DNA of 64,000 nt, from positions 1,704,719-1,768,718 of the forward strand of contig NC_044288.2 in the NCBI RefSeq assembly GCF_004027225.2. Direction: 5' to 3'. Both the position numbers and the translations under genes were made by a program. Under the pieces are notes generated by a model, which worked only from the letters and a program-made list of their open reading frames with translations, searched no databases and was not told the DNA's origin. This document shows, piece by piece, positions 53,816 through 59,491 of the stretch. The stretch comes from Strigops habroptila. Its lineage: Eukaryota > Chordata > Aves > Psittaciformes > Psittacidae. Position 1 is the stretch's first letter. Each line of letters starts with the position of its first letter.

Positions 53816-56800
53816 CTATGGAAGGGTAGACACGAGGGTTCTGAAACAGGTACTAGGCTGATTGCTTCATATTTAGAGACAATTAGACAACACCCATCCC
53901 CTCCATCAAAACCACCACCTTTGTCAAGCCTACAGCAGACTGGAGTTTCAGGAACGGACAGATAAGATGCCCTTGGTTCACAAACATGCTCCCTCCAAGT
54001 CCTGAACTCAAAGCCCATAATGTCACACATGGGCACTGTAAGTATCTTGCAGAAACTGGCCCAAACATTGCAACTGAAAAAGACCAACATCCACACCTGC
54101 TTTTTTTACAACACAGAGGTTTGTGGGAGAAGCAAACTCTGCTTTCAATGATCCCTGAGCGAGGATGTGGCAAAGAGGTGAGACAACAAATGGCTGCAAA
54201 ATGGGAAAGCAAAGAACCAAGAAAAATACCCTTACACCCAGCAAATCTGGGTGGAAAAGGGCTTGCAAGTACAAAGCAGGCGAAGCAACTGCCCCTGGCA
54301 AAGGTACAACTGCCAGGTTTTTAAACTCCAAATCACGATGGTTGTCTGGGTTATAAAAGTAGCTTCAAGTTTCTGCAGAAACACTCGAGCTGCACGTAAA
54401 TCCTGTTGGGCTGCAGCAAGTGGAGAGAGCCCCCAGCCCAGCCCCTCGTGGTACCTGCAGGGGCTGCACAGCCGGGTGCGGGCTGCGGACACTAGAGGCG
54501 TATTTGTAGGGAGGAACCGCTCTGGGAGCGGGGGCAGCCACGGGCGGGCGAGGGGCCAAACTCTGCGCTGCGGCACCCACTCCTGCAAGAGAGGAAGAGA
54601 ACAGATCTACAGGCACCTGCAGCCATGTGCAACTTGGGGTGTCTGCTGTTAACTGCTGAATTCAAACTACGCTCAGTAGAACTTCTGTAGGAACCGGCCT
54701 GCAAAATGTAACTGGCTGCTTTAGGAAGGGGCTCTTCTCCCTGACAGTAACCCAGGGATTCCACATCTGGCATTTAAGGTACGTTCTAACTATTCACCGG
54801 AATAAAATTAATCTGGATGCTCTACTCTGAAAGCAATATCCATAACCTAAAGAGCCTTCTTTTTTTCTGTTTGAGTGGTAAATGTTGCAGAGGTGTAGAG
54901 ATGAGTTGCAAACCAGTGGAGAACAACCCATCTGGATTTCCACTGCTGTGCTGTAGCACCAACTGCCCTCAGACCTGCAATGCACAGCAAGCAATAGGAA
55001 AGATTCAGGCGCTGTCTCTGCCCATTGCTTCTGGTGGTCTTTGGTTATCTTTTGTCTTTGGACAACCACCTTTGGAAGCAGAAGTCAAGTCTCAAGAGCA
55101 TCCTCATCCCTCACAGACAAGGGGAGAGCCTGGAAGCAGACACCTTACCAACTCGCTGGGCAGCGGCAGGGAGGCCACGAGAGGCCGGGGCATTGCCGGC
55201 AGGGGCCAGATGGCGCAGTGCTGGCCGTGGTCCAGACTGGCGCATGGCATTTGGCATTCCCTGGAAGCCTAATGGAAGAAATGAGGGGAAATCCTCAAAC
55301 CAGAACCGACTGGCAAGTCAGGACAGTTAGCTACAGGAAGCAGGTTGGGGTTGTGCACAGAAAGGAGAGCATGCGTTGTTCGTGTTGGAAAGTACAGCCA
55401 AAAAGGTCATACAGGTTCTCTCACCTTGAGGTCTTCCTCCTTGCTGCCAGCGTGGGTTGGGTCTCATCTGTGCCATTTGATTGGGTGCATAGTAAGTGGG
55501 TCTGCTCTGAGCCTGAAGAAAGATCAGACAAGCTCAGAAGCAACATCTAAGTGAGTACCAAACATTGTTCACAACATGTTTTGGCAGTTGTTGCCAGGAC
55601 TCAACACTCAATTCACATTAAGAGGCAGCTGGGAAGTCACATAATTAACTCACCGCCTGCGCCCCTCATTAGGAGTTATTTGCTTACAGACACAGAAAGG
55701 CTCAGCAAGATTACTGCAGCTGAACCACCACAGCTCCAAGACAGGTTCCAAAGGAACACTAGCTCAGCTTACCTGGGGCACAGCAGGCATGAAATAGCCC
55801 CCAGCAGCAGGCTGGAACTGATTAATGATTGTGTTGGCAGGCAGGGCTCTCATCCCAGCGATGCGCTGCATGTACTGGTTGGTCAGATGGGCCTTTCGCT
55901 CCTCTTTCCTTTGGGCAAGTGCCACATACAACGGCTTTGAGCCCACAATTCGCCCGTTCATCTCTGTCACAGCTTTTGTGGCTTCCTCTGGAGAGGAAAA
56001 GCAGACAAAGCCAAACCCTTTGCTCCGTCCATCTTCCAGCATCACCTGCAGTAAAGATCAATTGCTAGTGGAGCACCATGACAAGAACTTAGCCTAAGAA
56101 TCCACACTTTAAAATGTCACATTTCAGACAGGTTGGATGTAACTGTTGCAGAGGTGTAGAGGCAGGTACCCACTGAGAAGTCACCTGCCTGGATTTGCTT
56201 TGCCTTTCTGTACGCACCATGTGTCCCCAGGCCCACACTGAGCAGTAAGGAATGGGAAAGATTTGGTGCAAGCTCTAAAGGGAAATGCCCATGTCATGCT
56301 TACTGGAAGTCACCTCCAACAAGCACGTTTCCCACCTCCTGCCTCCTCTTTTGATGAGGGAATGAAGCAAGTTTTCAGTAAGATCCCACCAAGACCCAAA
56401 GAAATCTGTGTGTTTACTAGCGCACATGTTCTCAGGATCACAGGGAACAGAAGAACTGCCCTTCAATCCCAAGTCAGATACAGTTCCTTCTTCAGGCTTT
56501 AAAATCCAAATAGCCCCAAAGCCCACAATACCTTGGCACTTGTTATTGACCCAAAAGGTGAGAATTCCTTCCTCAGTTTTTCATCATCTATGGTGTCATC
56601 TAGGTTTTTAATATATAGGTTAACACCCTAGAAGGGAGAGAACAATGAGACATTCATAACATTAAAGAAAATCTCGAGCACATTGACTGCTAGCATCCAT
56701 CTGCCAGAGCTGTAATTTATCTGAAAACTCTTAATTTAGCATCATGTTCCCTTCATACCACCCAAAGCTGAAGCAATAAATGTTGCAAAGGCGTAGAGAC

Positions 56801-59491: not shown

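What the first reader, a model, noticed from the sequence alone, without database searches (positions are those of the whole stretch)
54880..56914. Three diverged H/ACA snoRNA copies in three introns of one host gene (PABPC4)
Introns at 54583-55148, 56046-56531 and 56628-57200 each contain one sense-oriented element with H box (ACAGNA), terminal ACA box and two hairpins. Human PABPC4 hosts one SNORA55 as far as I recall. A three-copy intronic family suggests in-gene duplication (intron to intron) in this lineage or loss elsewhere, with all three apparently still structured.
Basis: partly seen in the sequence, partly recalled or inferred. Interest (0 to 1): 0.8.

Follow-up and report, generated by a model that had tools for sequence, protein, structure and literature searches.

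The report
Three known snoRNA copies in PABPC4
Three diverged copies of the small nucleolar RNA SNORA55 sit in three introns of one PABPC4 gene; they look intact, but the same three-copy arrangement in the same introns was tabulated for chicken in 2009, so this is ordinary.

Summary
Rfam's SNORA55 model (RF00431) hits all three places at full length on the minus strand with 103-109 bits (cut-off 45) and nowhere else in the window; a whole-genome search returned only these three (best candidates scored). An exon model puts them in PABPC4 introns 6, 7 and 10. Shao et al. 2009 (PMC2653536, Table 2, passages seen) list chicken GGgACA4: three isoforms, 131 nt, guiding 18S-36, 'PABPC4 (intron 6,7,10)', and ascribe nearly all chicken snoRNA paralogs to intragenic duplication. 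All three copies keep an ANANNA H box, an ACA box 3 nt from the end, and 7+4 pairing around 18S U36 (18S letters recalled). Six of 31 Rfam pairs change on both sides and stay paired. Against: only copy A folds far better than its shuffles, and C breaks 5 of 31 pairs. The copies are 62-66% identical to one another and 69-76% to the consensus, a hint of old duplications. Species, expression and age could not be determined. Best reading: three working, partly redundant 18S-U36 pseudouridylation guides.

The parts
56778..56910 (-). SNORA55 copy A, intron 6, 133 nt
   Evidence: RF00431 109.1 bits
56141..56269 (-). SNORA55 copy B, intron 7, 129 nt
   Evidence: RF00431 104.6 bits
54880..55012 (-). 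SNORA55 copy C, intron 10, 133 nt
   Evidence: RF00431 103.2 bits
56628..57200 (-). PABPC4 intron 6 (573 nt; snoRNA ends 150 nt before the 3' splice site)
   Evidence: exon model
56046..56531 (-). PABPC4 intron 7 (486 nt; 95 nt)
   Evidence: exon model
54583..55148 (-). PABPC4 intron 10 (566 nt; 297 nt)
   Evidence: exon model
56897..56903 (-). copy A, left arm of the 5' guide pocket, AAUCUUU; right arm GAUA at 56862-56865
   Evidence: pairing with 18S around U36, 18S letters recalled
56257..56263 (-). copy B, left arm AAUCUUU; right arm GACA at 56222-56225
54999..55005 (-). copy C, left arm AAUCUUU; right arm GGCA at 54964-54967
56847..56852 (-). copy A, H box ACAGGA; ACA box at 56781-56783
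56206..56211 (-). copy B, H box ACAGAA; ACA box at 56144-56146
54949..54954 (-). copy C, H box ACAGCA; ACA box at 54883-54885

Best explanation
Three intronic H/ACA box snoRNA genes of the SNORA55 family, copied from intron to intron inside PABPC4 long ago and kept by selection. Each is released with its intron, trimmed, bound by the H/ACA core proteins (dyskerin, NHP2, NOP10, GAR1; established for the class), and its 5'-hairpin pocket pairs with 18S rRNA around U36 to direct pseudouridylation there. The three are partly redundant and raise or steady the dose of one guide. Shown by sequence: family, host introns, boxes, structure with compensating changes, guide pairing. Inferred: expression, processing, activity, redundancy, selection.
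For: RF00431 hits at E about 1e-21 to 1e-22, only these three returned from the whole genome. Same gene, same introns 6, 7, 10 and near-same length as chicken GGgACA4, assigned to 18S-36 by 7+4 nt in the 5' pocket. Left guide arm AAUCUUU identical in 3 of 3; right arms GAUA, GACA, GGCA can each pair with UGUC, G-U allowed, 13-14 nt before the H box. Six of 31 pairs changed on both sides and still paired. Invariant columns: 19 of 25 in pocket loops, 37 of 62 paired, 9 of 19 hinge and tail, 7 of 33 elsewhere. Significant similarity between the introns is confined to the snoRNAs plus at most 7 nt upstream and 1 nt downstream. Psi36 is a known site of human 18S (passages of PMC11541003).
Against: No expression data for this genome. 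Copy B does not fold better than its shuffles to any notable degree and C only modestly; C breaks 5 of 31 consensus pairs. 18S of this genome was not obtained (no exact pattern match; rRNA family search did not complete), so the target letters are recalled. The right-arm search also found runs as long for A and B (and one shorter for C) 7 nt further on, inside the closing stem; I chose the run that lies in the pocket. Pair counts use rows aligned to the Rfam model, which leans towards its structure. The chicken table names a second guide for 18S-36, GGgACA5 in another gene, so the PABPC4 set may be dispensable. A review reports a non-canonical role of human SNORA55 at mitochondrial proteins in liver cancer (passages of PMC10932220).
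Confidence: 0.8

Rival explanations
1. Only one or two copies work; the least consensus-like or least stable copy is a decaying duplicate that is no longer made or no longer active.
For: C breaks 5 of 31 consensus pairs; B and C are weakly or not more stable than shuffles; redundant copies have no reason to be kept.
Against: All boxes and the guide arm intact in 3 of 3; compensating changes include pairs where B or C is the changed copy; all three listed as isoforms in chicken; scores 103-109 bits, far over 45.
Confidence: 0.12
2. The copies have diverged in function: one or more guides another site through its 3' pocket or acts in other tissues.
For: The 3' pocket loops are largely invariant among the copies though the published assignment uses the 5' pocket; copies of one snoRNA family in one host can vary independently between tissues in human (passages of PMC8178906).
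Against: A shared 3' pocket argues for a shared second function rather than a divided one; no target was sought; the 18S-36 guide is kept in all three.
Confidence: 0.1
3. The copies arose by retroposition of a SNORA55 RNA into neighbouring introns rather than by DNA recombination.
For: Similarity stops close to the RNA ends. In human, H/ACA copies are thought to come mostly from retrotransposition (passages of PMC8178906). Copy C has a run of 7 A within 30 nt downstream.
Against: Longest words shared between the two flanks are 5, 6 and 5 nt, reached by 461, 111 and 797 of 1000 shuffles; longest A runs downstream of A and B are 2 and 3; all three lie in sense in one gene; Shao et al. saw no snoRNA retroposons in chicken.
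Confidence: 0.2

Closest known systems
Chicken GGgACA4 (Shao et al. 2009, BMC Genomics 10:86, PMC2653536)
   Same: ACA55 homologue, three isoforms, PABPC4 introns 6, 7 and 10, 131 nt, 18S-36
   Different: Its sequences are in supplementary files that could not be read here, so identity with the window's copies is untested; the window's species is unknown and may or may not be chicken
Human SNORA55 (ACA55), Rfam RF00431
   Same: Full-length covariance-model match; same host gene in human (recalled)
   Different: One copy in human PABPC4 (recalled) against three here
Chicken GGgACA39 (ACA54 homologue, NAP1L4 introns 7 and 9)
   Same: Another H/ACA paralog set inside one host gene
   Different: Two copies, target 28S-3311

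Membership tests
SNORA55 (Rfam RF00431) | Covariance-model score above the gathering cut-off of 45 bits | tested here: met
   109.1, 104.6 and 103.2 bits over positions 1-135 of 135
SNORA55 (Rfam RF00431) | 5'-pocket guide pairing around 18S U36 | tested here: met
   7 of 7 left-arm pairs and 4 right-arm pairs in each of three copies, G-U allowed; the 18S letters were recalled, not fetched
H/ACA box snoRNA | Two hairpins with H box between and ACA box 3 nt from the 3' end | tested here: met
   Minimum-energy folds of 3 of 3 copies; boxes
H/ACA box snoRNA | Fold more stable than expected for its composition | tested here: inconclusive
   z -5.53, -0.91, -2.02 for A, B, C
H/ACA box snoRNA | Mature RNA of about 130 nt bound to dyskerin and the other core proteins | not testable with these tools
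   needs RNA or protein data from the species
Three-copy PABPC4 set (chicken GGgACA4) | Copies in introns 6, 7 and 10 of PABPC4 | tested here: met
   Exon model with exon 1 in L005 against Table 2 of PMC2653536
Three-copy PABPC4 set (chicken GGgACA4) | Copy-by-copy sequence orthology with chicken | not tested

The most novel reading that the evidence does not exclude
The three paralogs have divided their work: tissue-specific use, or a second target through the conserved but unassigned 3' pocket, beside the shared 18S-U36 guide.
Probability: 0.1. Interest if true: 0.4.

Novelty: already known. Interest (0 to 1): 0.12.

Why it matters
It is a clean example of intron-to-intron spread of an H/ACA snoRNA with guide and structure kept. 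[quoted passage not shown] but it has been tabulated since 2009.

Tried and rejected
One search covered the genome with a wrong accession (RF00422, SCARNA24) by my mistake; it has no bearing here. A fourth or decayed copy was sought with a model built from the three and not found. Retroposition marks were sought without a clear result. Naming the species failed: the cytochrome b family gave one broken fragment, the lysozyme family gave nothing, with the control silent too. An exact 31-base 18S pattern was not found in the assembly, so the target check rests on recalled letters. Rfam lines for MIR6426 and uxuA (E 0.12 and 0.64, far below cut-off) were set aside as chance. In one search, at E up to 10, 6 of 14 prokaryote control genomes also gave matches, none over the cut-off; the three hits of the window's genome are all over it. 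Paper searches: SNORA55 with PABPC4 gave 3 papers (listing only, titles on human disease genetics); ACA55 with PABPC4 gave 1, PMC2653536. Terms of interest were absent from the main text of PMC8522698, and SNORA55 from that of PMC4378963. Searches were used for leads, mostly from listings.

Full report
Observation. A scan of the 64 kb window against all of Rfam (E up to 1) gave three strong matches, all to SNORA55 (RF00431), on the minus strand and full length: 56910-56778, 56269-56141 and 55012-54880, with 109.1, 104.6 and 103.2 bits against a cut-off of 45. The two other lines, E 0.12 and 0.64, are far below their cut-offs. A search of the whole 1.15 Gb assembly with the same family, listing matches to E 10, returned these three and no others; the tool warns that only the best candidates are scored, here 42. 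In that of 14 prokaryote control genomes also gave matches at E up to 10, none over the cut-off.

Host gene. Thirteen exons, drawn by hand, with AG acceptors and GT donors between 53341 and 59491, translate into a poly(A)-binding protein. Exon 1 lies past the window end, in L005:2864-3043 (96.7% identity to a recalled 60-residue PABPC probe), and its end fits the start of exon 2. That the gene is PABPC4 and not a paralog rests on recalled human sequence and on the agreement with the chicken table.

Anatomy. Each copy has an ANANNA H box (ACAGGA, ACAGAA, ACAGCA) and ends with ACA plus three bases. Minimum-energy folds show two hairpins in 3 of 3, but z-scores against shuffles are -5.53, -0.91 and -2.02 for A, B and C, and the centroid of C is another fold. 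On the rows aligned to the Rfam model, 30, 29 and 26 of 31 consensus pairs are standard in A, B and C, and 6 of 31 pairs change on both sides among the copies and stay paired. Pocket loops are the most constant part: 19 of 25 columns invariant, against 37 of 62 paired, 9 of 19 hinge and tail and 7 of 33 other columns.

Function. The left arm of the 5' pocket reads AAUCUUU in all three and pairs 7 of 7 with 18S nt 38-44; the right arms GAUA, GACA and GGCA pair with nt 32-35, G-U allowed, starting 13-14 nt before the H box. The script found runs of 4 also 7 nt further on, inside the closing stem; I took the one in the pocket. The 18S letters are recalled, because the assembly gave no exact 18S match and the rRNA family search did not complete. 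The result is the 7+4 nt, 5'-pocket, 18S-36 assignment printed for the chicken homologue. Psi36 of human 18S is a known site (passages of PMC11541003). The chicken table names a further 18S-36 guide, GGgACA5, in another gene, so the site need not hang on these copies alone. The 3' pocket loops are conserved too; I sought no target for them. A review reports that human SNORA55 binds ATP5A1 and ATP5B in liver cancer cells (passages of PMC10932220); whether that bears on these copies is unknown.

What is known. Table 2 of Shao et al. 2009 (PMC2653536; passages and the whole of section 13 seen) lists GGgACA4: three isoforms, 131 nt, 18S-36, functional homologues U69/ACA55, host 'PABPC4 (intron 6,7,10)'. 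A footnote says that only isoform a's length and guide are given. The paper says that almost all chicken snoRNA paralogs come from intragenic duplication and that many varied widely while keeping guide and structure. Its RT-PCR covered 14 guide snoRNAs and the 20 orphans; the passages seen do not say whether GGgACA4 was among them. The window therefore shows the published arrangement, in chicken or in a relative; that the genome is a bird's is my inference from this and from its size.

Origin and age. In the model-aligned rows the copies are 64.4 (A-B), 65.7 (A-C) and 61.9% (B-C) identical to one another, and 71.9, 68.9 and 75.6% to the Rfam consensus for A, B and C. This star-like pattern suggests old duplications, but the consensus is not an ancestor, so it is a hint and not a date. 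BLAST between the introns finds significant similarity over the snoRNAs plus at most 7 nt upstream and 1 nt downstream. Upstream of A and B 9 of 15 bases agree, less elsewhere. The flanks share words of 5, 6 and 5 nt, reached by 461, 111 and 797 of 1000 shuffles; the longest A runs in the 30 nt downstream are 2, 3 and 7. Recombination and retroposition cannot be told apart at this age.

Verdict. Confirmed and rightly read, but ordinary and in print since 2009. What stays open is the expression of each copy, the age of the duplications, and whether the paralogs differ in use.

Noticed in passing
window 53736-53755 (minus strand), PABPC4 exon 12: A run of ten C at which the PABPC4 reading frame shifts: one frame reads through exons 2-11 into exon 12, another continues from there to the stop. 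A homopolymer length error in the assembly is likeliest; a polymorphism or a real frameshift is not excluded.
   Followed up: partly
G000:C7:10140631-10140924 (L007): The only cytochrome b match returned from the assembly is a fragment with four stops under the standard code, perhaps a nuclear copy of mitochondrial DNA; no full cytochrome b was returned.
   Followed up: no
3' hairpins of the three snoRNAs, e.g. window 56785-56844 in copy A: The 3'-hairpin pocket loops are largely invariant among the copies although the published assignment uses only the 5' pocket; no target was sought for want of rRNA sequence.
   Followed up: no
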